In this document: positions 18-14,284 of the stretch, piece by piece
How positions within the stretch are numbered: the stretch's first letter is position 1
Layout: each line of letters begins with the position of its first letter
Assembly: GCA_021852245.1 (NCBI GenBank)
Contig: JAJZNY010000442.1
Location: forward strand, 1-14,625
Origin: Planctomycetota bacterium
GTDB lineage: Bacteria > Planctomycetota > Phycisphaerae > WQYP01
Length of the DNA stretch: 14,625 bases
Direction of reading: 5' to 3'
Program-made: the position numbers and the translations under genes
The notes under the pieces: generated by a model
Seen by the model: the letters and a program-made list of their open reading frames with translations, nothing else
Told to the model about the DNA's origin: nothing
Database searches by the model: none

Positions 18-2381
18 TCAACAAGACCTGCGTGCCATCATCGATTCGTTCTGCCATCGGTTAGCGGCGATTAATGCCTGTCCCAGCGCCAGCCCGCCAT
101 CATTGGGCGGAACCAGGCGGTGCCGCAAAACTGTCAGTCCCCGTCGCTTGAGTCGATTTGTAAGATCGCGGGTGAAGAGTTGATTGGCGAAAACGCCGCC
201 GGAAATTGCAATGCTTCCAATCTGATGTGCGACGACGGTCCGCATGATGATGTCTTCCCACGCGGCGGCAAACTGGCTGTGGAACAGGGCCGCAAGCGCT
301 TCTACCGGTACTGGATTTTCCTGTAGTTCCAACAGTCGGCGGTAGAGGGGGCGCAGATCAATCCGGTCGACATCGCCGTCGTAACGGTGGATTTGCCAGA
401 GGGCTTCGGATGGTTCGAATTCGCCGACGATCGCCGCTGATTCGAGTTCCATCGGGGCCTGTGCTTCAAAGCTGTTGCGGCTGCAGATACCCAGCAGGGA
501 AGCGATCCCATCAAAAATACGTCCCGCACTGCTGGAGGTTACACACTGAAATCTCCGCGTCATCATCAGTTTGAGCAGCTTCCGATCCGAATCGTTGGGA
601 ACCAGTCGTATGGCTGCCGGGTGCCGGTCGAAATCATCTCCGAAAGTCTGATGGAGAATCGCCAGGGCACTGCGTGAGATATCGATTGCGGCGGTGTCTC
701 CGCCGGCGAGAATGAGCGGTTGCAGTGAAGCGATACGGTGAAATGTATGGGCCTCCACCCGGAGTAATTCGCAGCCCCAGCCGGTTCCATCCAACCCCAG
801 TCCTGTCCCATCGCAAACGAGTGCTAATGTCGGGCCACTCACGCCATGTTCCGCCATGACAGACGCGGCATGAGCATGGTGATGCTGAATTGCCAATAGT
901 GGCGCGTCGAATGATTTCGCCAATTGACCCGCGAACTGGGAACTGATGTACATGGGGTGCATATCGTGGGCGATGAATTGCGGGCGCACGCTATAAAGGC
1001 GGCAAAGATCATGGATGGTTCGGACAAACTCCGACCGCGTCCGCGGATTACCCAAATCCCCCAGATATTGACTCAAGATCACGTGGGAATCTGCCACCAG
1101 CGCCACTGTGCTTTTTAATTCACCGCCCAAACATAGTCCGCTCAACGACGGCGGGATATTCAGAGGAATAACGCCAGGGACAAAGCCACGCGATCGACGG
1201 ATCGGCAGTGGAGATTCCCCTTCCCCCATATCCAGCAGCACCGAATCGTCAAGACATCGGGCAATCGGCCGATCATGCCACAGAAATGCATCGCACATAT
1301 CGCCAAGCCCGGCGATCGCTTCAGAATTATTTATTGCCAGCGGTTCACCACTGACATTGCCGCTGGTCATCACGAGTGCCGGAATCTCGAGGTCCAGATC
1401 GGCAAACAAGAGATGATGGATCGGGGTGTACGGGAGCATGATTCCCAGGCGGGCATTCCGTCCCGCGACAGCCTCTGCGACGGGGGCTCCCGGCCTGCGC
1501 ATCGCCAGAATGATCGGTGCGGATTCTGACAGCATGACGGCCCGGGCTTGCGAGCTGATGCTGACCAATCGACCGGCGTCGTCCATGGATCGACACATCA
1601 TGGCAAACGGCTTGCCATCCCGTTGCTTTGCCCCCCTGAGTCTGATGACGGCCGCCTCATCGTCCGCCCGCGCGGCCAGATGAAACCCTCCAATTCCCTT
1701 GATGGCGACTACGCCCCCGCCGCGTAATATCCCGGCTGCCTGCCTGATGGGGTCGCCATGTAATGCAACACCATGAGCATTAACCAATTCAACTCCCGGC
1801 CCGCAATTGGGGCACGATACCGGCTGTGCGTGGAATCGCCGATTGCCGGGATCCTCATATTCCCGGCGGCATAGATCGCACATTTCAAAGCCGGCCATGG
1901 TGGTGGCGGCGCGATCATACGGCGTCTCAAGGATGATGCTGTAGCGGGGGCCACAATTTGTGCAGTTGATCATGGCATGGTGGAATCGACGATTGGTCGG
2001 ATCAAAAAGTTCCTGCTGACAATCCCGGCACATGGCGGTATCGGGTGTGATGGCAGTCCGGCCCGACACCACACTCCGGCTCTCTTCGATATGAAACTCA
2101 CACTCGCCTGTACAGGGATCGATGATCAATTCGGTAACGTCGTCAATTCTCGCCAGCGGCGGAGTGTCGTGCTTCACCAGCTGGCAAAAACTTCGGACAT
2201 CGGCGGCAGTTCCCTGCACCTCGATGGTGACGCCCTGAGTTGTGTTGGCGACAAATCCACTGACAGATGTGAGGCGTGCGAGGCGATAAACATGGGGGCG
2301 AAAACCAACGCCCTGAACCTGGCCACGAATAATCAAGCGGCGACGTTGTAAATCCAGACCGTTGATGATTGCCGTAGCCAT
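18..2381 (-). CDS. hypF: HypF, carbamoyltransferase of [NiFe]-hydrogenase maturation
   Basis: HypF converts carbamoyl phosphate and ATP to carbamoyl-adenylate and transfers the carbamoyl group to the C-terminal Cys of HypE, the precursor of the CN ligands of the [NiFe] site. It acts in the cytoplasm. The family domains appear in order, numbered from the ATG at 2381: an acylphosphatase domain (about 15-100, with RGQVQGVGFRP); two zinc fingers with CxxC pairs at 118/121 and 140/143, and 168/171 and 190/193; a YrdC-like domain (about 218-395, with GGGVVAIKGIGGFHL and KQRDGKPFA); and a Kae1-like domain (about 410-775, with HHHAHA at 500-505, DGTG near 524 and ISGGVFAN at 726-733). The length of 787 residues is normal. 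The frame is open upstream to 2462, but ATG 2381 is preferred: AGAGG sits 9 nt before it and the acylphosphatase fold begins just after, while the upstream 27 residues look like untranslated leader. A probable hypC follows directly. No defect is visible. Confidence 0.96.
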   Translation of the reverse strand: MATAIINGLDLQRRRLIIRGQVQGVGFRPHVYRLARLTSVSGFVANTTQGVTIEVQGTAADVRSFCQLVKHDTPPLARIDDVTELIIDPCTGECEFHIEESRSVVSGRTAITPDTAMCRDCQQELFDPTNRRFHHAMINCTNCGPRYSIILETPYDRAATTMAGFEMCDLCRREYEDPGNRRFHAQPVSCPNCGPGVELVNAHGVALHGDPIRQAAGILRGGGVVAIKGIGGFHLAARADDEAAVIRLRGAKQRDGKPFAMMCRSMDDAGRLVSISSQARAVMLSESAPIILAMRRPGAPVAEAVAGRNARLGIMLPYTPIHHLLFADLDLEIPALVMTSGNVSGEPLAINNSEAIAGLGDMCDAFLWHDRPIARCLDDSVLLDMGEGESPLPIRRSRGFVPGVIPLNIPPSLSGLCLGGELKSTVALVADSHVILSQYLGDLGNPRTRSEFVRTIHDLCRLYSVRPQFIAHDMHPMYISSQFAGQLAKSFDAPLLAIQHHHAHAASVMAEHGVSGPTLALVCDGTGLGLDGTGWGCELLRVEAHTFHRIASLQPLILAGGDTAAIDISRSALAILHQTFGDDFDRHPAAIRLVPNDSDRKLLKLMMTRRFQCVTSSSAGRIFDGIASLLGICSRNSFEAQAPMELESAAIVGEFEPSEALWQIHRYDGDVDRIDLRPLYRRLLELQENPVPVEALAALFHSQFAAAWEDIIMRTVVAHQIGSIAISGGVFANQLFTRDLTNRLKRRGLTVLRHRLVPPNDGGLALGQALIAANRWQNESMMARRSC

Positions 2382-2489
2382 GACGCCGGTCCTCTTTGCC
2401 CTGCCGGGTCTCGGGTGACTCGCATCAATCGGCCGCACCGCGAAACCCGGCCCCGCTCTCAAGCTCCACGAATCACATTACCGCCACAA

Positions 2490-2725: not shown

Positions 2726-4000
2726 TCAGCCAGCGCGGGTATCAATAAATATCTGCGGCTTGCGCGAGGGACGAAGGGAGCGGATTCGTGCCATGGTTTT
2801 CACATCACAATATTGAATTTTCGGTATCCATTTAAAATGACGCCGGGCGGCATTGTGAAATCGCGTTCTGAGCAGATGCTGACGCCGCGGCGGACAGACG
2901 ACATAAATCACCACGCGATCGACTCCGATGGCATCACGATCGGCATGAACAATCGCGTCCATCCCCGCATAAATCTCCCGCAGCAGTTCGATGATCGCAG
3001 TTGCAAATATGGATACGCCCTGCACTTTCAAGAGTTGCGAGGAACGGCCAAGAATCGGGCTAATACGAGGAGACGACCGTCCGCAGGGACACGGCTCAGG
3101 ATGAAACGCCGCGATGTCGCCGGTATCGAAGCGTATCAGCGGCATGGCATGCAGGCCCAACGGTGTTATCACCACGCGTCCGGCTATGCCCGGTTTACAT
3201 GGTCTGCCCCCAGCATCCAAGATCTCGATCACCCCCATCTGTGGGTTGAGATGATTGCCAAGGCATTTTGGCCCTTGCGCGAAGGTGCAGCAGACCTCCG
3301 TCGAGGCGTAGGTTGAAAGGATGGGAGCGCGGGTAAATTGTGAAAGTGCCCGATGGACGGCATTGGGCTGAAAGTCGGCATTAAATAATGATTCACCGAT
3401 ACCGATGATCGCGCCGAGATTCTCCGGCAAAGGCGCGCCATCCCGAAGGCTGCCGGCCATCAGCGATGGGACGCCGATGAGAAACCACTTTCGCCCGGGG
3501 GCGAGCGGGAGCTTGGCGACGCCCGCCAGATCCACCAGCGACGGGCCCATGCGCAGGGATAACGCCCCGCACGCCTGTGCCCCAAGCCAATAGGCCAGAC
3601 CGGCAACAAAAAGCCGATCCATGCCGACTGCAATGAGCAGACCATCCCCGGCCCTGAGTCCTGCGAGAGAGAGCGCTGCCGCTTCATTTTGGGCAAGGCG
3701 CAATATGTCTTTTTCTGCCAGGGCAATCCGCACTGGTTGACCGGTCGTACCTGATGTTGTCACCCACTCTCGTATCTCCGCCGGGTTTACCGCGAGAAAG
3801 TCGAGATTATTTTTAACCAGCTCGGCCTTGGTGGTGATGGGGAGCGATTGAAACAGGTGTCGATGCAGATGGATATCTTCCGCAGCCGCCGGAATGCGAT
3901 CACGATAATAATTGCATTTTCTCGCTCTGCGGAGCTGGGCGGAAAGCTTAGTCCATTGCGGTTTCAATATCGTTGGGTAGTCGGTCATGTTCGGCTGCAT
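2726..4000 (-). CDS. PaaK/CapK-like adenylate-forming acyl ligase
   Basis: This 424-residue protein belongs to the phenylacetate-CoA ligase branch of the ANL superfamily, which activates a carboxylic acid as acyl-AMP and usually passes it to CoA or another thiol in the cytoplasm. Visible motifs are the P-loop-like TSGTTGQP (82-89), YASTEV (231-236), RFDTGDIA (290-297), CPCGRSSPRI (304-313) and the hinge GRSSQLLKVQG (317-327). K414 in SRKPQIFIDTR aligns with the C-terminal catalytic lysine of PaaK. The N-terminal KLSAQLRRARKCNYYRDRI also matches the family opening. Length is normal, so the enzyme looks intact. It starts 18 bp after the exporter stop, so it is probably co-transcribed. GGAG lies 13 nt before ATG 4000, rather far; ATG 3988 is an alternative start. 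The substrate cannot be read from the sequence. In the context of a LolA-like carrier and an MMPL exporter, priming of an aromatic or fatty acid for a lipid-like product is plausible, but inferred. Confidence 0.85.
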   Translation of the reverse strand: MQPNMTDYPTILKPQWTKLSAQLRRARKCNYYRDRIPAAAEDIHLHRHLFQSLPITTKAELVKNNLDFLAVNPAEIREWVTTSGTTGQPVRIALAEKDILRLAQNEAAALSLAGLRAGDGLLIAVGMDRLFVAGLAYWLGAQACGALSLRMGPSLVDLAGVAKLPLAPGRKWFLIGVPSLMAGSLRDGAPLPENLGAIIGIGESLFNADFQPNAVHRALSQFTRAPILSTYASTEVCCTFAQGPKCLGNHLNPQMGVIEILDAGGRPCKPGIAGRVVITPLGLHAMPLIRFDTGDIAAFHPEPCPCGRSSPRISPILGRSSQLLKVQGVSIFATAIIELLREIYAGMDAIVHADRDAIGVDRVVIYVVCPPRRQHLLRTRFHNAARRHFKWIPKIQYCDVKTMARIRSLRPSRKPQIFIDTRAG

Positions 4001-4018: not shown

Positions 4019-7000
4019 TTATTGAACCGGTTGTGTGGGCGTGGATTTTGCCAGAAGCAGTAAACGGCGAAGTGCCAGGCGCCGAGCCTGATATGGCGGG
4101 TCCAGAGCCAGCGCACGCGAAAGCGCGGCAGCCGCGTGATGGAGGTGCCCGAGCGCCAGATCAGCACGCCCCGTGAGCTCGTAACTGGAAAAGAAGTCGG
4201 GATCATTTTTGTTGGCGACCGCCGCTTCCTGCAGCGCTTTTTCAAATTCGCCTTGCCGCAGGTACCGATATCCCGCATGCAGGGCCCGGCGAGCCGTTTT
4301 GAACTGCTGCCATTTTCCGGAAGTCCGAAAATGGTCAGCCGGGATCGGAGGAAGCAGGCACGCTTGAAGAGGCGGCGGATGCCGCGAAAGAAGCGGGTAG
4401 ACGTTGATGCCAAGATATGCCCCTTCCGCATAGGGCCATGCCGCCACCCAAAGCTCTCCTTTGGTCAGATTCATGATCGCGGAATGGGCGGTGATCAGCG
4501 CGTCGATGGCATTGCGGTTACCGTAACCGATGAATTGCCCATGAAGTCCGGCCTTATCGCGCAGCAGAGCGGCGAGGTGCACGGCATTGACATGCCCATG
4601 CATGTCATGAATGAGAAGTGCGGCTCTGGCTTGCCGAAATCGCGTTGTTGAAGCGACGATCCGCTGCCGATTAACCGGATCATGTTGGAAGACCGGTGCG
4701 GTAAATTCATTGGCCACGGCGGCATAGGTCTTAATGGGGATGACCGCGCAGTGCAGCGGCGATTTTTCAATGATCACCGCCCGGCCGGTGTTTCCATCCC
4801 CCACCACAATGCTGTCGGCAACAAATACCGGGGCGTGCCGGATGATCGCCTCCGCCTGTGAAAGACTGCCTGCAAACTGCAGAACCTGCCTGGCGGCGAT
4901 GATGGTCGGCTCACCGATCGGTTTGAAGCCGCGTGTGGCCGCCGCGTTAATAAAGAGGCCGATTTTCCGGCTGTTGAAACCGGTTACGCAGCCGCTGAGT
5001 CCCGGCCACGCAACACTGACAAATGCGTATCCTTTTTTCGGACGCATCAAGGTGATGCTCTTCTGGCGATTGAATGCCGGACCACCTTCAAAATCAAAAT
5101 TTCTCGCCAGCCAGAGACAATGATCTCCCGACCAGGCCGGGCACGAAATCACGCCGGTACACCCCACCGCATGAGCGTCAATAAGCGGATTATCAATAAG
5201 ATTTTGTGAAATATCATCCAGCGCTTCATACGAAAGGAGTCGCGCATAGGTGGGCCCCAGATAGCCGTGAATATCAGGATGTGACACCGATTCCGCATAC
5301 GCCTCGCGCTGGATGTAGCCTGGGATGTAACCGGGTAATTGGAGCATATCCAGCGCCACACCGCGTGTGATGACCCACTGTGCCCAGAGGGAGGGGACGA
5401 AGTGATGGAGCTGATCCAGCATGTCGTTTTCAATCTGCGTATCGATGGGTGCCCCCAAAGCGCCATCGTCATAACCGATTCGACCGCTCGATCCGGCGAC
5501 GGAGATCACCCAGATACCGCCGACCCGCCGCATCCATGCACGCCCAATGTGCCACGAATGGGAAGACAACTGCTGCACGACCCGATGCTTTGGCAAATGA
5601 ACGGTTCCGGTGGGCCTTTCACCGGTCATGACCAACTGCCCGACGCACACGACCACCAGCGCCAGGGCCCCTGCCGCACCTGCGATGCCGATACCCCAAA
5701 ATATCAGGCGCAGGGCAAATCGGCGGATGGCAAGGCGACGGCGTAGCACTTTGCCGGGTTGGCGGAGCCTATACCGCAATCGCACGAGCGGCGCGATCCA
5801 GCATAGCGCGGTGAGATAGCCACCGGTGATCCCTGCCACCAGCGTCAGGCCGATCCAATGCAGTGCGGGATGGCCGGCGGCAACAATCGCGCCGGAGCCG
5901 AGGATGGTCGTCAGGGCGCAGATGCCAGTCGTCATGGTGCGTGGCCGTGCCGCTGGATCGGCGAGATTCGGATCGCTGGCGGTGTATATGCCGTAGTCGA
6001 TGGCGACACCCATGGTGAAAAGCATCGGGACCAGCGCCAGAAAATTCAATCCGCCGCCAAACCACTGCGCTACTCCAGCGAGCCAGATGAATCCGACGAT
6101 GAGGGAAAGCGTCGCAACAGCGGCGATATCGATTCGCCGAAAATAGATGCATACCGGCAGAAATATCGCCAGAAATATCCATGGGAATAAGAATTCCAAC
6201 TGTGCCTTGCAGCGCTGGGTGGCATCGAATAACAGCGCACTACCATCTATGATCATCGCACGCGGAAATTGAAGCTCAATCTGTCCGACCCAGTCGGAAG
6301 CCATTCGAGGGGTAAGTCGGCGATTGGGATAGACGGTGGTGGAGATCAGATAATGTCGGCGAGTGATCGTAACTCCGCCCGGGAAAAGCCGAACGGGGGA
6401 ATGGATCATTCTGTAGCGGGCGGAAATGTCGGTTGGCAGTTTCACAAACTCTGAAAGCATGGAGCGGTGGAAGTTCAAGCCGAACAGGTTCGTGACCTGC
6501 TGAAGCCGCGTACGGAGCATTTTGATCCGTGCCGGTGACCAATAAGCCCGCCAGCGTTTGAGCCTGCGATCAAAAATCCGCGTGGGCGGCAGCATCGGGA
6601 TTGGTGAGACAAAACCTTCAATGAGATTTTGCCGCCGGAGCGCATTGAGATTATCACGCAGCAGTGCCGCCTGCTGGAGAGCACTTTCCGCGTGATGAGA
6701 GCGGATGACCACGGCGCCATGATGGCGGCTGTTTCCCCATATCCGGAAAAAGCGATTCTGGATTTGTGCCTGTCGCCGTGGCACGCCGTTGAGGTTCGAT
6801 GGATGCGAATTGTAATTGAGTTTCGCGGCGTGGATGGCCAAGATGATGGTCGCGATGGTAAATGCCGTGGCAGGCAACCAACGGAGTTTTTTCGGGAATT
6901 GAAATCGCGGGGATGTCGGGTGCGGGCGACAATATTCCCCGATAAACACTGGCAAGATCGAAAAGGTGACCAACCAGATGCAAAACGTACCGGCCGCGAT

Positions 7001-8260
7001 AAAAAGTCCCATCGCCCGCAGACCGGGTGCATCGGAAAATGCCAATGCCGCGTAGCCGGCAATGCTGGTCAGCGCACTCATCGTGATCGGACCGAAGAGG
7101 GCCCGCGCAGCTTGCGTCTTGGGCGGCGTACCGTGCGATGCCGCGTCAGATACTGACGGTGATTCATCGGCTAACCGCCCATACTGGGCCAATATCTGTA
7201 TCCCGTAGTCGGTGGTCGCACCAAGGATAAGGCCCGCGAACGCCAAAACCATCAGCGGGAGATGAAGATGGAATATCCCGGCAATGCCCAACGCCATTCC
7301 CAATCCCACAGCCGGAGGCAGCATGCAGATGAACAATGTTCCGACGCGACGAAAATAGAACCAGATGACGCCCGCCACCAGCAGCGAACCCAACGTTGAA
7401 ACCAGAACAACATCGCGTCGGACTCGCGCCGCGTTGGCGGCGTAATCGACATAGGCTCCAAGTGTCCATACATGAAGTTGCGGAAAGGTACGCTTCAATT
7501 TTCCTATCGCGCCGGCAATCTGTCGCAGCATGAGAGTGCTCCGCCGCGTTTGCGCCGGAGCAAAGCGGGGTGTGGCCATCAGCATGATGTGCGTGCCACG
7601 ATCTGCCGAGAGCTGTCCCCGATCCATCATCACCCGGCCAATCGCCATATGCTCCGGGAGGTTACTGCGCATCTGACGATGCAGCAGCGATCTGGCGGCG
7701 AGCGGATCACGCAGTTTACCCGCGAGTTGCAGCACCCCTCCGGGAGCTTCGATATCCACCCGAAGAGCTGCAAAATGGCGGCGGAGCCAGCGGCGATGAA
7801 GATGCGTCTGCAGGATTTTGAACGATTTTTTATCCAGCAATCCGGGCAATTCGGCATTTAATATTCCTCCGGACTGTGCCAGAGCTTGCGGTGAAACACG
7901 TTCCCATACGGAATAAAACTCATGCGTCTTGCGCATCTCGGCCGCCAGCATTCGGGCGGCTGCCGGCAGCTGATGGCGGAACCGCATCGAAGAGTGAAGA
8001 TCGACATAAAGATGATTGGTGATGGATGGATATCGCGATGCGGACCGCAATGATTTCATTTCCGGACTGGACTGCGGAAAAAACAGCAGAACATTATTCT
8101 GCCATCTGATCTTGGTTGAAGCGGCAGCGAGCAGCACTCCGGAGACGATCAGCAGTATCACCAGCCATACTCGGCGCCGCTCACAGAAGGCGTACCAAGC
8201 CGCCATGGCGCGAGTGAGGCGGTCGGCGTGCGGAGATCCTGACTCATGCAAATCTGTCAC
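4019..8260 (-). CDS. MMPL/RND exporter fused to a C45 acyltransferase-like domain and TPR tail
   Basis: This 1413-residue protein has three parts. Residues 1-835 form an RND/MMPL predicted exporter: TM1 about 31-48, a periplasmic loop about 50-280, a TM bundle about 283-445 with DYGI at 351-354, TM7 about 460-478, a second loop to about 688, and a second bundle about 690-828 with DYGI at 755-758. These paired Asp-Tyr motifs are the usual proton-relay positions. An extra TM at about 853-878 should place what follows in the periplasm. Residues about 885-1300 resemble peptidase C45/acyl-CoA:6-aminopenicillanate acyltransferase Ntn hydrolases: GCTG with candidate nucleophile Cys1034, then LARNFDFEGG (1051-1060) matching the family GRNxDW motif, and GLFINAAA (1101-1108). 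Residues about 1325-1395 form one or two TPR-like helical repeats. Start GTG 8260 overlaps the stop of the LolA-like gene (GTGA), with AAAGG 6 nt upstream. Typical MMPL exporters of this group have 750-900 residues, so this is a true fusion in one uninterrupted frame. The cargo is unknown; a lipid or aryl-polyene-like compound is inferred. Confidence 0.85.
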   Translation of the reverse strand: MTDLHESGSPHADRLTRAMAAWYAFCERRRVWLVILLIVSGVLLAAASTKIRWQNNVLLFFPQSSPEMKSLRSASRYPSITNHLYVDLHSSMRFRHQLPAAARMLAAEMRKTHEFYSVWERVSPQALAQSGGILNAELPGLLDKKSFKILQTHLHRRWLRRHFAALRVDIEAPGGVLQLAGKLRDPLAARSLLHRQMRSNLPEHMAIGRVMMDRGQLSADRGTHIMLMATPRFAPAQTRRSTLMLRQIAGAIGKLKRTFPQLHVWTLGAYVDYAANAARVRRDVVLVSTLGSLLVAGVIWFYFRRVGTLFICMLPPAVGLGMALGIAGIFHLHLPLMVLAFAGLILGATTDYGIQILAQYGRLADESPSVSDAASHGTPPKTQAARALFGPITMSALTSIAGYAALAFSDAPGLRAMGLFIAAGTFCIWLVTFSILPVFIGEYCRPHPTSPRFQFPKKLRWLPATAFTIATIILAIHAAKLNYNSHPSNLNGVPRRQAQIQNRFFRIWGNSRHHGAVVIRSHHAESALQQAALLRDNLNALRRQNLIEGFVSPIPMLPPTRIFDRRLKRWRAYWSPARIKMLRTRLQQVTNLFGLNFHRSMLSEFVKLPTDISARYRMIHSPVRLFPGGVTITRRHYLISTTVYPNRRLTPRMASDWVGQIELQFPRAMIIDGSALLFDATQRCKAQLEFLFPWIFLAIFLPVCIYFRRIDIAAVATLSLIVGFIWLAGVAQWFGGGLNFLALVPMLFTMGVAIDYGIYTASDPNLADPAARPRTMTTGICALTTILGSGAIVAAGHPALHWIGLTLVAGITGGYLTALCWIAPLVRLRYRLRQPGKVLRRRLAIRRFALRLIFWGIGIAGAAGALALVVVCVGQLVMTGERPTGTVHLPKHRVVQQLSSHSWHIGRAWMRRVGGIWVISVAGSSGRIGYDDGALGAPIDTQIENDMLDQLHHFVPSLWAQWVITRGVALDMLQLPGYIPGYIQREAYAESVSHPDIHGYLGPTYARLLSYEALDDISQNLIDNPLIDAHAVGCTGVISCPAWSGDHCLWLARNFDFEGGPAFNRQKSITLMRPKKGYAFVSVAWPGLSGCVTGFNSRKIGLFINAAATRGFKPIGEPTIIAARQVLQFAGSLSQAEAIIRHAPVFVADSIVVGDGNTGRAVIIEKSPLHCAVIPIKTYAAVANEFTAPVFQHDPVNRQRIVASTTRFRQARAALLIHDMHGHVNAVHLAALLRDKAGLHGQFIGYGNRNAIDALITAHSAIMNLTKGELWVAAWPYAEGAYLGINVYPLLSRHPPPLQACLLPPIPADHFRTSGKWQQFKTARRALHAGYRYLRQGEFEKALQEAAVANKNDPDFFSSYELTGRADLALGHLHHAAAALSRALALDPPYQARRLALRRLLLLAKSTPTQPVQ

Positions 8261-8991
8261 GCTTGACCTTTCGCGGCGAAGGTGGCCGGAGGAAATTTAA
8301 TATTGATCCGCGTACCGGAGAACCAGTAGTTGATGGTGCCCTGCGGGGACAGGACTTCAAGAGCCGCAAGGAAGCCGGTCTTCCGATTCACAAACAGTTC
8401 GATCTGCTTCACATAGCGACGAAACATCTTATTTGTGGGTGTGATGCTGAACGCGGCGATCGGGATAGGGGTAAGCGAAACATATCGACGATCACGCGCG
8501 GGAGGCTGAGGCAGGGGTGCGGAAAGAATTTTAATCTTTCCTGCGTGCAGGGTGTGTTTTTTTAGTTTGTTCAGGCTGCTGAGGTATTTCATGATCGGCG
8601 CAATTTCAGGTGATCGGGCGGCGTGGATGATGCGCCAAGGCTTGCCATGGGTTTTGGATTCAATCGTATCATGGCGAAGGAGATAAACCGTCTCAACAGG
8701 CCAATCGACCTGATATCTCATTTTGTCTGGTGCCAGCATTAACTTGCCGCCACTTTCAAAACCGTGTTTTAAGAGCGGAGATTTTTGGTAGCAGAGGAAG
8801 CGGGTCTGAAGGGTATGCCAATGGGTTTTATGCAACAGGCGGATTAGCAATGATGCGGGATTGTGTGCTGGGGGTTTGCCCGCCGCTGGTGTGCCCCAGG
8901 CCGATTCAATGAATGACAGCGCTATGGTAGCCGTGAATACCAGAGTAATCGTCACCGCGACGCGGTGGTCGTTCATGTTCCGTCGAACCAT
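8257..8991 (-). CDS. LolA-like periplasmic outer-membrane carrier protein
   Basis: This protein of about 244 residues has an N-terminal signal peptide, with a hydrophobic stretch VAVTITLVFTATIALSF and probable cleavage after SAWG. Residues about 45-240 resemble the LolA-like family (COG2834 type): FLCYQKSPLLKHGFESGGKL near the mature N-terminus matches the family pattern of an F-x-Q/K-x-K run, then a large-side-chain segment, then G-x-L, followed by MRYQVDWPVETVYLL in the position of the usual F-x-W sheet. Family members carry lipids or lipoproteins across the periplasm. Those next to MMPL exporters are thought to receive the exported product. Its stop overlaps the exporter start by 4 nt (GTGA), so the two are translationally coupled. 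The start is uncertain: GTG 8994, ATG 8991 and ATG 8976 are all possible, none has a strong ribosome-binding site, and all leave a usable signal peptide. Sequence similarity to true LolA is low, so the family call is moderate. Confidence 0.75.
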   Translation of the reverse strand: MVRRNMNDHRVAVTITLVFTATIALSFIESAWGTPAAGKPPAHNPASLLIRLLHKTHWHTLQTRFLCYQKSPLLKHGFESGGKLMLAPDKMRYQVDWPVETVYLLRHDTIESKTHGKPWRIIHAARSPEIAPIMKYLSSLNKLKKHTLHAGKIKILSAPLPQPPARDRRYVSLTPIPIAAFSITPTNKMFRRYVKQIELFVNRKTGFLAALEVLSPQGTINYWFSGTRINIKFPPATFAAKGQA

Positions 8992-9557
8992 CACGGCGTA
9001 AATTCTACCGCGATATCCGCACAGCAGCTTATATTTCAGCTTTACCTGAGGAGAGGCAATTCGTTCCGTCGAGGGACGCCATCTAAATATCAGAATAATC
9101 CCCGTCTAAGCCAGAGATCACCGAACGCATTGAAGGTGGATTATCAGATCGGCGAACTGATCACAAACCGAATAACTGCGGAGGAAAGAACGCGAAGAGT
9201 GTTTTCTATACACCGAATCCGTAAAAACATCGCAGTTCCGACAACCATCTCCAGAAGTTATACCGAAAACTCACAGAGTGATAATACGTCTTGTGCGGGC
9301 AGTGCCGAACTCTCTTATCGAGCTATATTGCGCGATGGAGTGGGACTGGAAGTTACGGATTCGGGCAGGGTGCCGAACCTGGCCTCGAGCTCCTCCAGGG
9401 ATTTGCCCTTGGTTTCCGGTGCCAAGGGGGTACATCGAGGCCGAGTAACCCGCCATGCCAGATCGGCACGAAAGGGGAAATTTCAAGTGGCGGATCGGCC
9501 CGGACGGTGCAATAATCAGGTGCGCCGTGATTTTGATTGATGTGGAGACCTTCCGCC
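8992..9557. other. 566-bp divergent intergenic region with a gene relic
   Basis: This region separates the minus-strand exporter unit from the plus-strand ABC importer and must contain the promoters of both. It is more AT-rich than the coding DNA (27 G/C of 60 in 9001-9060). No intact gene was found. The long plus-strand open frame over 8965-9540 has no family character and is partly antisense to the MFS relic. On the minus strand, TTGCCT around 9054-9059 and A/T-rich AAATATAAG about 17 nt further on might be a promoter for the LolA-like gene, but the match is poor. No clear promoter for the importer was recognised. The relic occupies 9315-9422. Confidence 0.55.
9315..9422 (-). pseudogene. 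Relic of the C-terminus of an MFS sugar porter
   Basis: The minus strand encodes APETKGKSLEELEARFG followed by 18 more residues and a TAA at 9315-9317. The segment PETKGKSLEELE is the near-invariant cytoplasmic C-terminal signature of MFS sugar porters (the XylE and GLUT type), found just after the last TM helix. Here no TM helix precedes it: the same frame reads hydrophilic residues upstream and meets a stop at 9483-9485, with no start codon in between. The other two frames do not resume a TM helix either. It is therefore the leftover tail of a porter gene whose body was lost, possibly when the ABC importer operon at 9558 onward arrived. The upstream edge of the relic cannot be fixed exactly. 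Confidence 0.75.
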
Positions 9558-10583
9558 ATGACCATTCCAACCAACAGCCGTGTGATGCGGACGTGCCAGA
9601 GCAATCGGCCAGTTTATCCATTCTTCGTCCTGATCTCGCTGGCGGTTTTTCTCATCGGCATTCCAGCGGTGCAGGGGCGGGTCTTCAGGATGGCCTTCAT
9701 ATGCTCGGGATCGATCACCGACGGGGGTTGGAATCAGGATGGTCGCGATGCCGCTGTGAAGGTTGCCAAAGCACTGCACGCGAAGCTTTCGGTCCTTGAA
9801 CATGTAACGCCCATCCGGGCGACGAGCATCATGCGTGACTTCTGCCGACGCCATTACGGACTGATCATCGGCCACGGGTATGAATTTCTGATTCCCGCGA
9901 CTCAGGTGGCACGGATGACCACGCACACGCGGTTTGCCATCAGCGGCGCGGACAAAGTGGAACCGGGCGTGACCACGATGAATTTCGATCTCACGCAACC
10001 GTCTTATGAACTCGGAGCGCTGGCGGCCATGATCTCGCGGACCGGGAAAATCGGCTTTATCGGCGGAGAGGCGATTCCCTCAGTTGAAGCGTGCTACAAA
10101 GGATTCAAAGCCGGTGCCCGCGCGGTGAATCCGAAGATTCGCGTGGCCCAGGCCTATACCAGTTGGGATCAGGTGGGACTTTCAAAGACGCAGGCCCAAG
10201 CCTTTATCCAGCAGGGGGTGGATGTGATCTATCAGAATGTGGATGCGGCCAGCCAGGGGGTTTTTGAAGCGGTCAAATCGGCAGATCGAAGACATCCGGG
10301 CCATCCGGTTTATGTTTTCGGCTGCAACGGAAATCAAAATAATAATCCCACCTGCAGCCGCTATACACTCGCCAGTGCCGTAATTCGACTGGATCGGGCC
10401 TTCATGCATGTCGCGATTCTTGCCAAAGCGGGAAAACTCAAGGCCGGCGTCATTAATGAAACCATGGCCAATCATGTGTGTATTGTTGTCTTGAATCCGA
10501 AGTTGCTCGGCCGGGTCATTACGCCCGCCATGGAGCATCGACTTGCTGTGATCCGCAAACACCTGCTGGCGGCTAAATCATAG
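9558..10583 (+). CDS. BMP/PnrA-family substrate-binding protein of a nucleoside ABC importer
   Basis: This 341-residue periplasmic binding protein belongs to the Basic Membrane Protein (PnrA/Med) family, which binds nucleosides or related ligands for the ABC proteins encoded downstream. After a signal peptide (hydrophobic residues 21-36, probable cleavage after AVQG at 40) comes the family opening FICSGSITDGGWNQDGRDAA (47-66), corresponding to the D-x-x-[FW]-N ligand loop. Further matches are GLIIGHGYEF, GKIGFIGGEAIPSVEACYKGFKAG, DVIYQNVDAASQGVFEA and ASAVIRLDRAF. There is no lipobox Cys after the hydrophobic segment, so it should be a soluble periplasmic protein. ATG 9558 is chosen because GGAGA lies about 9 nt upstream; TTG 9537 and ATG 9540 lie before that site, and ATG 9585 has none. 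The ATPase gene starts 34 bp downstream, so this is the first gene of the operon. The exact ligand is inferred from the family. Confidence 0.9.
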   Translation: MTIPTNSRVMRTCQSNRPVYPFFVLISLAVFLIGIPAVQGRVFRMAFICSGSITDGGWNQDGRDAAVKVAKALHAKLSVLEHVTPIRATSIMRDFCRRHYGLIIGHGYEFLIPATQVARMTTHTRFAISGADKVEPGVTTMNFDLTQPSYELGALAAMISRTGKIGFIGGEAIPSVEACYKGFKAGARAVNPKIRVAQAYTSWDQVGLSKTQAQAFIQQGVDVIYQNVDAASQGVFEAVKSADRRHPGHPVYVFGCNGNQNNNPTCSRYTLASAVIRLDRAFMHVAILAKAGKLKAGVINETMANHVCIVVLNPKLLGRVITPAMEHRLAVIRKHLLAAKS

Positions 10584-10617
10584 CCTTCGGGCGCCGAGTT
10601 ATGGGTTTGGAGTCTTC

Positions 10618-12201
10618 ATGTCGCCATTGCTGGAACTGATCCGGATCACCCGCCGCTTCGGCAACCTTACGGCGCTGAGCGAGGTGAGCCTGCGGGTGAA
10701 TGCCGGAGAGGTGTTCGGCATTCTCGGCGAAAATGGAGCGGGAAAGTCTACCTTGATGCATCTTCTCGCCGGGGCACTGCAGCCGAATTCAGGTCAGATT
10801 CTGCTGGAGGGGCAAAACGTTGTGATACCCTCGCCCCGCCGTGCATTTGAACTCGGTATCGGCATGGTATATCAACATTTTAAGCTGGTCGGTACTCAGA
10901 CCGGGATGGAAAATCTGGCCTTGTTTGCACCCGGGGGCTGGTGGCGAGGCGTTTCCGCAGAGGTTCGACAAACGGCGGACCGGTGGCGGACGGAGCTGAA
11001 TTGGAATGTGGAAATGCACCGGCCGGTGGAGCGACTGAGTGTCAGCGAGCAGCAGCGGATTGAGATCATCAAAGCGCTCTCGCTGGGTGGGAGACTGCTG
11101 ATACTTGATGAGCCGACCGCCGCACTGACACCGTCGCAGGTGGATTCGCTTCTGTCCACGGTTCGGCAACTGGCGGAGCGGGGACTGACGGTTCTGCTGG
11201 TGAGTCATAAACTTGCTGAGATAAAAAGCGTCTGTGACCGCATCATGATTCTGCGCCAGGGACGGATGACGCTGGAGGCGGCGGCGGACGCGGTTTCGAC
11301 GTCAGAGATCATCACGGCAATGATCGGAAAGGACATTTCGCTGCCGACTGCAGCTCGAGGACGGCAGGGAGGGCGGAGTGTTTTGGAACTTGAGCACGCA
11401 GAACCCAAGCACAGGGGACGACATTCATTTGACCGAGGTGGTTCCGTATTGAAAGCGGCATCACTTCGCGTCAATGCCGGAGAAATTGTGGGAATCTGCG
11501 GCGTGGAGGGGAGTGGACAGATTGAACTCTCGGCAATCCTGACCGACGAAACTCGTGCTGCGGGCCGACTTGTGATTGACGGCATTCCGCTGACCAAATC
11601 CGGAGCTCGACGACATTTGAAAGACATCGGCGTCATACCGGCGGACAGGCAGAAAGAGGGGCTGATATTAACTTGGTCGATTCATAATAATCTGGCGCTT
11701 AAAGCGCATGACCGGCGGCCGTTTTCCCGCTGGGGCATTCTTCGGCGCCGACGATGGTCGGAAACTCATGAAAGAATTAAGCGACAGTTTGACATTCGCG
11801 CCGGTGATTTGCGCATGCCGGTCGCTGGACTATCCGGTGGAAATCAGCAGAAGGTGATCGTCGCCCGGGAATTGGAGCTCAAGCCGAATTTTCTGCTGGC
11901 GATCAATCCCACACGGGGGTTGGATGTCGGGGCTGCGGCATTTGTCATGCAGCAGATGCTCATCGCGCGGGACAGCGGGATGGGGATTCTGCTGATTCAT
12001 GATGATCTGGATGAGTTGTTGCGGCTCAGCGATCGGCTTTATGTGATGTACGCGGGGCACCTGTACGAGACGCCGTGGCCGAATGCGACGCGCCGCCAGA
12101 TCGGAGCGTGGATGCTGGGAAACGATTTGGATCAAATCCGCAGCGGTCCGCATGGAGATGACGGACTCCCTGACCGCAGAAACGGCCCGGTGCAAACTTG
12201 A
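10618..12201 (+). CDS. Double-NBD ABC ATPase of the BMP-type nucleoside importer
   Basis: This 527-residue ATPase has two fused nucleotide-binding domains, as in the sugar/nucleoside CUT2-like class. NBD1 is complete: Walker A GENGAGKST (37-45), Q-loop Gln86, signature LSVSEQQRIE (140-149), Walker B LLILDEP (160-166) and His197. NBD2 has the degenerate Walker A GVEGSGQIE (295-303), without Lys and Ser/Thr, an intact signature LSGGNQQ (405-411), and the altered Walker B stretch LLAINPTRGLDVGA (426-439), where Asn-Pro replaces Asp-Glu. This asymmetry is normal for the family, so the protein is not damaged; one composite site is expected to hydrolyse ATP. ATG 10618 has GGAG 5 nt upstream. The stop overlaps the TTG of the next permease gene (TTGA), which indicates translational coupling. 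The domain order and neighbours match the Bacillus nupO/yufO type of transporter. Confidence 0.95.
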   Translation: MSPLLELIRITRRFGNLTALSEVSLRVNAGEVFGILGENGAGKSTLMHLLAGALQPNSGQILLEGQNVVIPSPRRAFELGIGMVYQHFKLVGTQTGMENLALFAPGGWWRGVSAEVRQTADRWRTELNWNVEMHRPVERLSVSEQQRIEIIKALSLGGRLLILDEPTAALTPSQVDSLLSTVRQLAERGLTVLLVSHKLAEIKSVCDRIMILRQGRMTLEAAADAVSTSEIITAMIGKDISLPTAARGRQGGRSVLELEHAEPKHRGRHSFDRGGSVLKAASLRVNAGEIVGICGVEGSGQIELSAILTDETRAAGRLVIDGIPLTKSGARRHLKDIGVIPADRQKEGLILTWSIHNNLALKAHDRRPFSRWGILRRRRWSETHERIKRQFDIRAGDLRMPVAGLSGGNQQKVIVARELELKPNFLLAINPTRGLDVGAAAFVMQQMLIARDSGMGILLIHDDLDELLRLSDRLYVMYAGHLYETPWPNATRRQIGAWMLGNDLDQIRSGPHGDDGLPDRRNGPVQT

Positions 12202-13310
12202 AAGGTGTGCGACTCCGGATGCCCTCGCTCCAACGCGGCAGAATGTTTCTGCTGGAAATATTATTTACCGTCGGCGGATGTGCGCTGGCGGCCAGCGCAG
12301 TATTGATCCTGCTTGCTCTGATGGGGTTCCCACCCGGTCACATCCTGGAGCTATGGTACCGGGGCGCGGCGGCGGATCGTTACGCTCTGGCGGATACCCT
12401 TACCAAGGCCTGTCCGCTGCTGCTGACCGGACTTGCGGCGGCCATTACATTTCGGGCCGGCGTTTTTAATATCGGAGCGCAGGGACAACTGCTGGTCGGA
12501 GCGGCCATGGCGGTGGCCATGAGCACGAGGCTGCTGAGTCCGCACACCCCCCCACTGCCAGGCATCACGATGTGCCTTTTCGCCGGAGCCATCGCCGGTG
12601 CCGCATGGGGATTGCTCGCCAGCATATTGGAATTGTGGCGCAAGGTGCCGGTGGTTCTATCCACGATCTTGCTGAATTTCACCGCCCTTTACGCGGTGAA
12701 AATACTTCTGCACAGTTATCTGCAGGCACACGGTACATCTGCTCCGCAAAGTTCGCAGATTCCGCCCCATTTCTGTCTGCCGGTGATGATGAAATACACT
12801 TCGCTGCATATTGGAGTTCTGATCGCGGCGGCCATTGCTGTGGTGGCGGAGTTCGTGCAGGTTATGACCGTATTCGGATTTCAGACCACCGCCATCGGAC
12901 TCAACGAAGCGGCTTCGCGGCTCGTGGGTATTCCGGTTGCGGCTCGTCAGATTCATACCATGCTGATTGGAGCCGGATGTGCGGGCCTGGCCGGGGCAAT
13001 TCAGATTTTGGGCGTTGCCCATTTCATGACGGCGAAGATCGGTAATTACGGCTACGCGGGGATTGCGGTGGCTCTGCTGGGACGGCTCGATCCGATAGGT
13101 GTGGCGGTGGCGGCGCTGTTTTTTGGTGCGCTCGACGCCGGGGCTCAGCGGGCGGAGGAGAGCAGCATCGGATTGCCGCATGAAACCGCCAATATCATCA
13201 AGGCCGTCATTATTCTCGCGATGCTGATGATCGGAGCGTGGTCGATGCGACGGACATTGCGCAGCGGCCTGTGGCAACCGCGCACCCCTGAAACAGGAGA
13301 TGGCGCCTGA
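12198..13310 (+). CDS. First permease of the nucleoside ABC importer
   Basis: This protein of up to 370 residues belongs to the BPD_transp_2 (LivH/RbsC-like) permease family, inner-membrane subunits that pair with a second permease and the double ATPase. About eight to ten hydrophobic segments are visible, the first near 17-42. The signature FRAGVFNIGAQGQLLVGA (85-102) is typical of the nucleoside branch, and the cytoplasmic loop GLNEAASRLVGIPV (234-247) is the probable contact with the ATPase. AVALLGRLDPIGVAVAALFFG (290-310) is also characteristic. TTG 12198 overlaps the ATPase stop and would allow re-initiation, but it has no ribosome-binding site. ATG 12219, with GAAAGG 13 nt before it, and GTG 12207 are alternatives; all precede the first TM helix, so the mature function is unaffected. 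The stop at 13308-13310 overlaps the start of the second permease. Confidence 0.9.
   Translation: MKGVRLRMPSLQRGRMFLLEILFTVGGCALAASAVLILLALMGFPPGHILELWYRGAAADRYALADTLTKACPLLLTGLAAAITFRAGVFNIGAQGQLLVGAAMAVAMSTRLLSPHTPPLPGITMCLFAGAIAGAAWGLLASILELWRKVPVVLSTILLNFTALYAVKILLHSYLQAHGTSAPQSSQIPPHFCLPVMMKYTSLHIGVLIAAAIAVVAEFVQVMTVFGFQTTAIGLNEAASRLVGIPVAARQIHTMLIGAGCAGLAGAIQILGVAHFMTAKIGNYGYAGIAVALLGRLDPIGVAVAALFFGALDAGAQRAEESSIGLPHETANIIKAVIILAMLMIGAWSMRRTLRSGLWQPRTPETGDGA
13295..13300 (+). promoter_or_regulatory. Ribosome-binding site for the CTG start of the second permease
   Basis: AGGAGA lies inside the last codons of the first permease gene, 6 nt before CTG at 13307. It is the strongest Shine-Dalgarno match in the importer operon. 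No ATG, GTG or TTG in the permease frame lies within range: the first ATG in frame is 13364, 63 nt away. The ATG at 13300-13302 overlaps the site and is in another frame. The spacing decides the start choice for the next gene. Confidence 0.65.
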
Positions 13311-14284
13311 GCATTTCACTACCGACTTTTCTTTTCAGGGAGACGATCAGTGCCGCCGCACCGATGGTGCTTGCCGGTCTCGGAGAACTTACGGCGGAAC
13401 TTACGGGCGTGATCGACATCGGCATTGAGGGGATCATGCTTTCGGGAGCATTGGCCGCGTTTCTGGCGTCGTTTGCGTCCGGTCATGGAATGATCGGTCT
13501 GCTGGCGGGAATCCTCTCCGGAATCGTCATGGCGGGCATATTTGCCATAACCTGCATCGGCATGGGCGCGGATCAGATCGTGGTTGGGACTGCGATTAAC
13601 CTTCTGGCATTGGGGGCGACGGGAAGCTTCTGGATGCTGTTTCAGAATTGGACACAAAACCACAATCTCGTTATTCACCTCACGCGGAATGAGGCATTCA
13701 ACCGCATACCGATCCTAGGGCTTTCACAGATCGGCTTCGCCGGACCGGCATTATTTGATCAATATGGGCTGGTGTATTTTACCATTCTGCTCTCCGGCGT
13801 TGTCGGCTGGACGCTGAACCGCACCCGGCTGGGATTGGTGATCCGCGGTCTGGGCGACTCCCCCGAGACCTGTGCGGCGGCGGGCATACCGGTAAAACTG
13901 AGTCGGACGCTGGCGACCCTCTTCGCCGGCAGCTGCGCGGGGGCCGCGGGAGCCTATCTGAGCATCATGCAGACGCACAGCTTTGCCCAGAATATGACGG
14001 ATGGAATCGGGTTTGTGGTGCTGTCTCTCGTGATTTTCGGGCGTTGGACGGTTTGGGGATTGATCGGCGGCTGCATTCTGTTTGGAGCCATTAACAGCCT
14101 GCAGCAGACCCTGCAGACCGCACGCTACACGAGCCATTCGACGTTTCTCCACGCCATGCGGCATCTGCCGTTTGAGCTTTTCCAGATGTTGCCGTATCTG
14201 GCCGCTCTTGTTGCGCTGGCCATTTTCGCGGGCAGTCGGCCGGGCCCCAAATATCTTGGGAAAAACTGGCAACCGGATGCCTGA
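13307..14284 (+). CDS. Second permease of the nucleoside ABC importer, probable CTG start
   Basis: This 325-residue BPD_transp_2 permease is the partner of the first permease. The family signature GVIDIGIEGIMLSGA (34-48) and the loop GLGDSPETCAAAGIPV are clear, and about eight hydrophobic segments follow. The first ATG in frame (13364) would begin inside the conserved segment SAAAPMVLAGLGEL, where homologues have a preceding helix. The frame is open upstream to a stop at 13289-13291, and residues FLFRETISAAAP encoded there fit the missing N-terminus. In that stretch the only good initiator is CTG 13307, which overlaps the TGA of the first permease (CTGA) and has AGGAGA 6 nt before it. ATT 13313 is a weaker choice. 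The alternative is that the start has been lost by a mutation or sequencing error. It is the last gene of the importer operon and converges on kbl. Confidence 0.88.
   Translation: MSISLPTFLFRETISAAAPMVLAGLGELTAELTGVIDIGIEGIMLSGALAAFLASFASGHGMIGLLAGILSGIVMAGIFAITCIGMGADQIVVGTAINLLALGATGSFWMLFQNWTQNHNLVIHLTRNEAFNRIPILGLSQIGFAGPALFDQYGLVYFTILLSGVVGWTLNRTRLGLVIRGLGDSPETCAAAGIPVKLSRTLATLFAGSCAGAAGAYLSIMQTHSFAQNMTDGIGFVVLSLVIFGRWTVWGLIGGCILFGAINSLQQTLQTARYTSHSTFLHAMRHLPFELFQMLPYLAALVALAIFAGSRPGPKYLGKNWQPDA

What the first reader, a model, noticed from the sequence alone, without database searches (positions are those of the whole stretch)
4019..8260. MMPL/RND exporter, C45 acyltransferase-like domain and TPR fused in one 1413-residue protein
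The sequence shows one uninterrupted frame with an exporter body, an extra TM helix at about 853-878, an Ntn-hydrolase-like domain with GCTG (Cys1034) and RNFDF (1053-1057), and a TPR-like tail. RND exporters of the MMPL type normally end soon after their last helix. A covalent acyltransferase/hydrolase on the periplasmic side would let the pump hand its cargo directly to an enzyme that attaches or removes an acyl group. From memory, C45-like proteins and MMPL exporters occur as separate genes in some flexirubin-type clusters; the fusion may hard-wire that link.
Basis: partly seen in the sequence, partly recalled or inferred. Interest (0 to 1): 0.75.

Follow-up and report, generated by a model that had tools for sequence, protein, structure and literature searches.

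The report
Lipid exporter fused to C45 acyltransferase
In some planctomycete bacteria a membrane pump of the kind that carries pigment-type lipids to the outer membrane is one protein with a penicillin-acyltransferase-like enzyme held on its outer side, which suggests that the lipid is chemically finished as it is exported.

The parts
4019..8260 (-). MMPL exporter - extra helix - C45 Ntn-hydrolase - TPR fusion, 1413 aa
   Evidence: One open frame; PF03176, PF03417, NF040521 matches; homologues with the same architecture
5771..8260 (-). MMPL/RND exporter body, residues 1-830
   Evidence: 11 clear hydropathy peaks and a weaker twelfth at 388-406 (1.35); HpnN and MmpL4/5 among profile matches; E. 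coli ApeM matched over 703 columns
7205..7210 (-). Asp351-Tyr352, first DY pair (proton relay of MMPL/RND proteins; the role is recalled)
   Evidence: Invariant in 17 of 17 rows of A3; codons checked
5993..5998 (-). Asp755-Tyr756, second DY pair
   Evidence: Invariant in 17 of 17 rows of A3; codons checked
5630..5686 (-). Extra helix (TM13), residues 859-877, joins exporter and C45 and would place C45 in the periplasm
   Evidence: Hydropathy 2.3; helix 842-880 in the 973-residue model; a hydrophobic stretch in 34 of 34 fused homologues
4373..5515 (-). C45/AAT Ntn-hydrolase domain incl. pro-region, residues 916-1296
5159..5161 (-). Cys1034 codon, predicted nucleophile and cleavage point Gly1033|Cys1034
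   Evidence: 59 of 59 rows Cys; preceding residue G 29, A 28, S 2; first aligned residue opposite residue 1 or 2 of penicillin V acylase and bile salt hydrolases, 126 of human NAAA and 143 of human acid ceramidase
5090..5104 (-). RNFDF, residues 1053-1057
   Evidence: R1053, F1055, D1056 in 59 of 59 rows
4046..4315 (-). TPR-like tail, residues 1316-1405
   Evidence: Five helices 466-555 of the model; profile matches to TPR structures; Pfam only below cut-off
8257..8994 (-). LolA2-like periplasmic carrier, 245 aa; overlaps the fusion gene by 4 bases
   Evidence: NF053544 LolA2_flexi E 4.7e-8, below its cut-off; a gene of the same cluster is upstream in all 7 whole fusions
2726..4000 (-). FlxY-like AMP-forming ligase, 424 aa; 18 bases downstream of the fusion
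   Evidence: NF053551 FlxY E 7.8e-88, 295 bits against a cut-off of 520; a gene of the same cluster is downstream on the same strand in all 7 whole fusions

Best explanation
The protein is an ApeM-type MMPL/RND lipid exporter that carries its own periplasmic acyl-handling enzyme. The FlxY-like ligase activates an acid (probably aromatic) in the cytoplasm; the product ends up on a membrane lipid; the proton-driven MMPL body moves that lipid to the outer face of the inner membrane; the C45 domain, held there by the extra helix and matured by cleavage before Cys1034, takes the acyl group onto Cys1034 and passes it to an acceptor; the LolA2-like carrier takes the finished lipid towards the outer membrane. 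Shown: architecture, predicted fold, catalytic residues, conservation, operon, and kinship of the exporter to the E. coli aryl-polyene exporter. Inferred: topology, self-cleavage, acyl transfer rather than hydrolysis, cargo, direction.
For: Domains and fold; C1034, R1053, D1056, N1184, R1249 in 59 of 59 rows; the one modelled segment under pLDDT 50 inside the domain is four residues just before Cys1034, where precursors of this fold are cut; hydrophobic helix in 34 of 34 fused homologues, with more K+R before it than after it in 29 of 34; C45 dN/dS 0.075 against 0.161 for the exporter, window versus G001; LolA2 upstream and FlxY-like ligase downstream in 7 of 7 whole fusions; ApeM match E 2.4e-24, ApeL 2.1e-5, ApeN 0.0071, same gene order; C45-TPR and MMPL as near neighbours in 6 of 10 f48 loci. 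Precedent: Chp2, a periplasmic acyltransferase that needs MmpL10 (PMC4183827, abstract and passages).
Against: No reaction or cargo is shown. The closest folds include hydrolases (acid ceramidase, NAAA) as well as a transferase. The FlxY and LolA2 matches are below NCBI's cut-offs. The ApeN match is weak, and a second DUF3261 profile from fewer rows did not find ApeN (E 9.8). DUF3261 is missing in 4 of 4 window-genus genomes; no aromatic lyase in 16 of 16 family genomes searched. Beyond LolA2, DUF3261 and FlxY no neighbour gene recurs across the fused genera; the upstream block of G104, partly shared by G025, holds Mla-type, Kdo-transferase and housekeeping genes but no ketosynthase or ligase among the 8 tested. 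5 of 34 homologues do not follow the charge rule. Several genera keep the operon without C45, so C45 is not needed for export as such. The f48 exporters are only about 20% identical to this one.
Confidence: 0.5

Rival explanations
1. The C45 domain is a hydrolase: it cuts an acyl amide, ester or thioester from the exported molecule (or from a lipid carrier) and so releases the cargo or resets the carrier, like acid ceramidase and NAAA.
Confidence: 0.32
2. The system moves and modifies a lipid that has nothing to do with aryl polyenes; the FlxY/LolA2 likeness reflects only distant kinship. (This concerns the cargo and can be true together with the first or second mechanism.)
For: No aromatic lyase in 16 of 16 family genomes searched; the ketosynthase pair found in G001 is no sign of a dedicated pathway, since its second gene has a match in 383 of 394 genomes of the class; FlxY and LolA2 below cut-offs; tested neighbours of one fused gene are not polyene genes.
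Against: Full-length match of the exporter to ApeM, same gene order, C45-TPR kin inside flexirubin-like clusters. A missing lyase is not decisive: the E. coli pathway is predicted to start from 4-hydroxybenzoate (PMC8253772), and G002, which has ketosynthase, LolA2, FlxY-like and MMPL genes together, has no lyase either.
Confidence: 0.4
3. C45 serves only as a self-cleaving linker that parts exporter and TPR tail after membrane insertion; its acyl chemistry is unused.
For: A small residue precedes Cys in 59 of 59 rows, as self-cleavage would need; in genus g51 another fusion keeps a lipobox in 7 of 7 proteins, so built-in cut sites occur in this exporter family.
Against: R1053, D1056, N1184, R1249 are invariant as well and C45 is the most constrained part.
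Confidence: 0.06
4. The frame joins two genes through an assembly or frame error.
For: None found.
Against: Whole fusion in 7 separate genomes, 41-91% identity; 29 whole and 5 partial fusions among 37 proteins; purifying selection on all parts.
Confidence: 0.01

Closest known systems
E. coli aryl polyene exporter ApeL-ApeM-ApeN (LolA-like, RND, DUF3261)
   Same: Gene order LolA, MMPL, DUF3261 as in the fused genera that keep DUF3261; exporter profile matches ApeM over 703 columns, E 2.4e-24
   Different: ApeM has 772 residues and no C45; the window has no DUF3261 gene; no C45 gene is annotated in the E. coli stretches read
Flexirubin cluster of Chitinophaga pinensis (FlxA-FlxY, LolA, predicted exporter)
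   Same: FlxY-like ligase and LolA2-like carrier beside an exporter; C45-TPR in a planctomycete cluster with lyase, ketosynthase, deacetylase, LolA
   Different: The words penicillin and peptidase do not occur in the paper's main text and the passages read name no C45 protein; the window has no lyase or ketosynthase
Mycobacterial Chp2-MmpL10
   Same: Periplasmic acyltransferase that depends on an MmpL exporter and finishes the lipid outside (PMC4183827, passages)
   Different: Chp2 is a separate cutinase-like alpha/beta hydrolase; here a C45 Ntn-hydrolase is fused to the exporter
Isopenicillin N acyltransferase (C45), acid ceramidase, NAAA
   Same: Fold, nucleophile position, pro-region
   Different: Soluble enzymes of organelles without a transporter part (recalled)

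Membership tests
C45/AAT autoproteolytic acyltransferase/hydrolase | Score above curated cut-offs | tested here: met
   PF03417 46.2 of 23.2; NF040521 139.7 of 85
C45/AAT autoproteolytic acyltransferase/hydrolase | Ntn-hydrolase fold with nucleophile Cys at the mature N-terminus position | tested here: met
C45/AAT autoproteolytic acyltransferase/hydrolase | Autoproteolysis before Cys | not testable with these tools
   Only the small residue before Cys in 59 of 59 rows
MMPL/RND lipid exporter | MMPL score above cut-off and two DY pairs | tested here: met
   32 of 20.5 bits; D351-Y352 and D755-Y756 in 17 of 17 rows
MMPL/RND lipid exporter | 12 transmembrane helices in two halves | tested here: inconclusive
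   11 hydropathy peaks over 1.4, a twelfth candidate of 1.35 at 388-406; six helices of the second half modelled
Aryl polyene exporter (ApeLMN kind) | Exporter homologous to ApeM over its length | tested here: met
   hhalign prob 99.6, E 2.4e-24, 703 columns, 19% identity
Aryl polyene exporter (ApeLMN kind) | LolA-like and DUF3261 partners | tested here: inconclusive
   LolA2-like present; DUF3261 absent in 4 of 4 window-genus genomes, present in other fused genera
Flexirubin/aryl polyene biosynthesis cluster | Ketosynthases, dehydratase, aryl starter genes in the cluster | tested here: not met
   None among the 8 window genes tested; no recurring neighbours; no aromatic lyase in 16 of 16 family genomes
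FlxY (NF053551) | Score above curated cut-off | tested here: not met
   295 of 520 bits
LolA2_flexi (NF053544) | Score above curated cut-off | tested here: not met
   32.6 of 125 bits
TPR | Score above Pfam cut-off | tested here: inconclusive
   18.5 of 27 here; helices modelled; 11 of 59 family rows match PF07719, best E 7e-9

The most novel reading that the evidence does not exclude
A lipid exporter whose chain contains its own cut sites and outer-face enzyme: the MMPL body exports an acyl or aryl-polyenyl lipid, the C45 domain cuts its own chain before Cys1034 and, still docked on the pump, transfers the cargo's acyl group to its final outer-membrane anchor. In sister genus g51 the same place is taken by a DUF3261 (LolB-like) lipoprotein behind a kept lipobox, so one exporter family would be made as polyproteins that are resolved into pump plus finishing enzyme or pump plus outer-membrane receptor. 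This would make C45 the missing outer-face step of flexirubin-type lipid anchoring in these bacteria.
Probability: 0.25. Interest if true: 0.78.

Novelty: new variant of a known kind. Interest (0 to 1): 0.52.

Why it matters
In the passages that I read, the export of flexirubin is called a matter of yet unknown mechanisms (PMC3992019), and the molecule that anchors the E. coli aryl polyene was not known, although the lipid of Xenorhabdus doucetiae is said to have been solved since (PMC8253772). A conserved fusion, together with gene neighbourhoods in other planctomycetes, ties C45 enzymes to the ApeM-type exporter and predicts a periplasmic acyl step that can be tested with one point change (Cys1034). 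It also gives a bacterial parallel, with a different enzyme fold, to the coupling of acyl transfer and MmpL export known from mycobacteria.

Tried and rejected
Ketosynthase pair as the missing pathway: G001:C98 has two adjacent ketosynthase genes, with a phosphoglucose-isomerase-like and a chorismate synthase gene behind them, but the second gene has a match at E 1e-40 or better in 383 of 394 genomes of the class (some of these may be ordinary FabF), so it says nothing about this operon.

Amine-oxidase family as pathway marker: PF01593 is present in 17 of 17 genomes searched, uninformative.

Aromatic lyase as aryl-starter marker: 0 of 16 family genomes; kept as evidence against a tyrosine-derived starter. 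Of the 5 other genomes in that call G002 has none and G479, G511, G407, G499 have one or two; only one of G499's lies in the C45 cluster.

Assembly error: rejected. One possible real split remains: P0045 (449 aa, longest contig 169 kb) lies in the fused clade without the exporter; not followed up. G074 shows the fusion in two pieces on two contigs, read as a contig break; G151 shows only its end.

Literature: no paper describing an MMPL-C45 fusion showed in the listings (titles, starts of abstracts and term counts seen; some lists were capped). Passages were read of PMC8253772, PMC3992019 and PMC4183827. This covers only the held open-access library.

Limits of counts: A2 used 9 loci and 50 of the 67 proteins. 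Of the 37 phylum genomes with a match I fetched the surroundings of 20. In one search, 3 of these 20 loci (L101, L110, L117) gave no C45 gene because my simple gene caller chose a longer overlapping frame; L070 is only 3.6 kb. PlsC was tested by Pfam in L104 and L106 only and is listed for P0035 and P0036; the label PlsCfused in the tree otherwise rests on the position of C45 in the chain. LolA2 was found near C45 in 1 of 17 loci (L113) and FlxY weakly in 2 (L113, L115). In the trees, rows with a C45 span under 330 or an MMPL span under 550 residues were dropped, and near-copies (locus and database protein) count twice; row L064 (G092, branch 4.48) in the exporter tree is no orthologue. The trees are quick ones without bootstrap. 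E-values are scaled to 5000 sequences.
Full report
What is there. The frame lies on the minus strand, 8260..4019, 1413 residues from GTG. It overlaps the LolA2-like gene (8257-8994) by 4 bases and is followed after 18 bases by a FlxY-like ligase gene (2726-4000), then by hypF (18-2462). Pfam and NCBIfam give MMPL (32 bits, cut-off 20.5), AAT (46.2, cut-off 23.2) and C45_proenzyme (139.7, cut-off 85). Hydropathy gives 11 clear peaks in the exporter in the RND pattern, a weaker twelfth at 388-406 and one more at 859-877 behind it. The DY pairs at 351-352 and 755-756 are invariant in 17 of 17 exporter rows; their role as proton relay is recalled.

Topology. A 973-residue model of the second exporter half with C45 (pLDDT 85.8, pTM 0.82) shows one helix 842-880 between exporter and enzyme. 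A hydrophobic stretch is present at this place in 34 of 34 fused homologues, with more K+R before than after it in 29 of 34. With an even number of helices before it, the enzyme would be periplasmic. This is inference.

Not an artefact. Of 37 proteins found with the C45 region at fusion-compatible length, 34 have MMPL followed by C45 (29 with the whole exporter, 5 beginning inside it), 2 have PlsC followed by C45, 1 has C45 alone in its frame. Of 28 genomes of the nearest family, 7 hold the whole fusion (G001, G104, G025, G015, G041, G055, G068), 2 hold pieces at contig ends (G074, G151), 7 hold MMPL fused to DUF3261 (one cut by a contig end), 9 hold an unfused exporter in the loci that I read, 1 (G169) was not read in full, and 2 (G092, G109) have no match at E 1e-20. 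Between window and G001 dN/dS is 0.075 for C45, 0.161 for the exporter, 0.333 for the linker and 0.339 for the TPR tail; with the more distant relatives dS is saturated.

History. In a FastTree of 123 C45 domains (118 different) the 44 MMPL-fused rows and 7 short rows, 6 of them on contigs of 3.6 kb or less, form one clade with support 100. In an exporter tree of 63 rows, unfused and DUF3261-fused rows lie among C45-fused ones; the label needs 4 changes and well-supported branches force 2. One gain and several losses fits both trees; it is not proven.

Neighbourhood. In 7 of 7 whole fusions the LolA2 gene is directly upstream (overlap 4 to 70 bases) and the FlxY-like gene follows on the same strand within 16 to 797 bases. 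A DUF3261 match follows the fusion in g34, g44, g57 and g117 (the one of g57 has a stop inside), but none is found in 4 of 4 window-genus genomes. Other neighbours do not recur across the fused genera. Eight genes upstream of the G104 fusion, several of them shared with G025, were tested: MlaD- and MlaE-like, a GNAT, a pseudouridine synthase, an MscS-type channel, a Kdo-transferase-like, an ASCH and an S1 protein. The E. coli aryl polyene cluster has LolA, MMPL, DUF3261 in the same order; the exporter profile matches ApeM over 703 columns (E 2.4e-24), LolA2 matches ApeL (2.1e-5), and the DUF3261 profile from 13 rows matches ApeN weakly (0.0071; hhalign probability 76), while a profile from fewer rows does not (9.8). 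Among 109 control proteins the best values were 7.5 for the 13-row profile, 0.22 for the other DUF3261 profile, and none for LolA2, MMPL and C45. In the cited study ApeL, ApeM, ApeN are proposed to carry the lipid to the outer membrane (PMC8253772, passages).

The separate genes. In a phylum sample C45-TPR kin occur in 37 of 392 genomes. I fetched 20 loci; 17 gave a C45 gene with my gene caller. Of these 17, 7 have an MMPL match (L099, L100, L104, L105, L106, L109, L111) and 6 a DUF3261 match. Of the 10 in family f48, 6 have the exporter nearby; L107, L108 and L103 have long neighbours without a Pfam match, and L070 is too short to tell. The f48 exporters tested are 20-21% identical to the window's. 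In L104 the order is reductase, ketosynthase, amine-oxidase-family flavoprotein, MMPL, DUF3261-like (below Pfam's cut-off), PlsC-C45-TPR. In L111 a ketosynthase gene overlaps the C45-TPR gene by 4 bases, more ketosynthase and reductase genes follow, and MMPL is fused to PlsC and a methyltransferase. In L113 C45-TPR lies with an aromatic lyase, a ketosynthase, an AMP-ligase-glycosyltransferase fusion, LolA, a polysaccharide deacetylase and a lipid A acyltransferase-like gene, close to the Flx gene list of Chitinophaga pinensis (PMC3992019, passages). FlxY of that organism makes 4-coumaroyl-CoA in vitro.

How it most likely works. The ligase activates an acid inside; the exporter moves the lipid that carries it; the C45 domain acts on the outer face; LolA2 takes the product on. 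The mycobacterial Chp2-MmpL10 pair shows that a periplasmic acyltransferase can depend on an MmpL exporter (PMC4183827, passages). What is against it is told in the Against line: no cargo, no lyase, no nearby pathway genes, hydrolases among the closest folds, and genera that do without C45.

Verdict. It is a new variant of a known kind (ApeM-like exporter, C45 enzyme), with good evidence for anatomy and association and none for the reaction.

Noticed in passing
L049:8606-11836 and six more g51 loci (L044, L045, L053, L054, L055, L056): In genus g51 the same exporter is fused to a DUF3261 (LolB-like) domain, and 7 of 7 keep an internal lipobox L[AG]GC after the joining helix, as if signal peptidase II released an outer-membrane lipoprotein from the pump.
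   Followed up: partly
L059:7864-11889 and L111:2658-6590: MMPL exporter fused to a PlsC-type acyltransferase and a methyltransferase, in ketosynthase-bearing clusters.
   Followed up: partly
L104:8641-11187 and L106:8564-11134: PlsC and C45-TPR in one chain, next to an unfused MMPL gene; with one membrane helix between them there would be one acyl enzyme on each side of the membrane.
   Followed up: partly
L113:3926-6070: AMP-binding ligase fused to a GT2 glycosyltransferase in a flexirubin-like planctomycete cluster.
   Followed up: no
L118:8990-11663: Adjacent pair of ketosynthase genes, the second weaker in the C-terminal domain, near a phosphoglucose isomerase-like and a chorismate synthase gene; the second gene has a match in 383 of 394 genomes of the class.
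   Followed up: partly
window 9537-14284: Divergent PnrA-like (BMP) ABC transporter operon: binding protein, ATPase, two permeases; same arrangement in G001.
   Followed up: no
P0045: 449-residue C45 protein from the clade of fused proteins, longest contig 169 kb: possible secondary split of the fusion.
   Followed up: no
L035:1007-10564: MlaD- and MlaE-like lipid transport genes and a Kdo-transferase-like gene upstream of the fusion in G104, partly shared with G025.
   Followed up: partly
window 18-2462: HypF carbamoyltransferase gene directly behind the ligase gene, also in G001.
   Followed up: no
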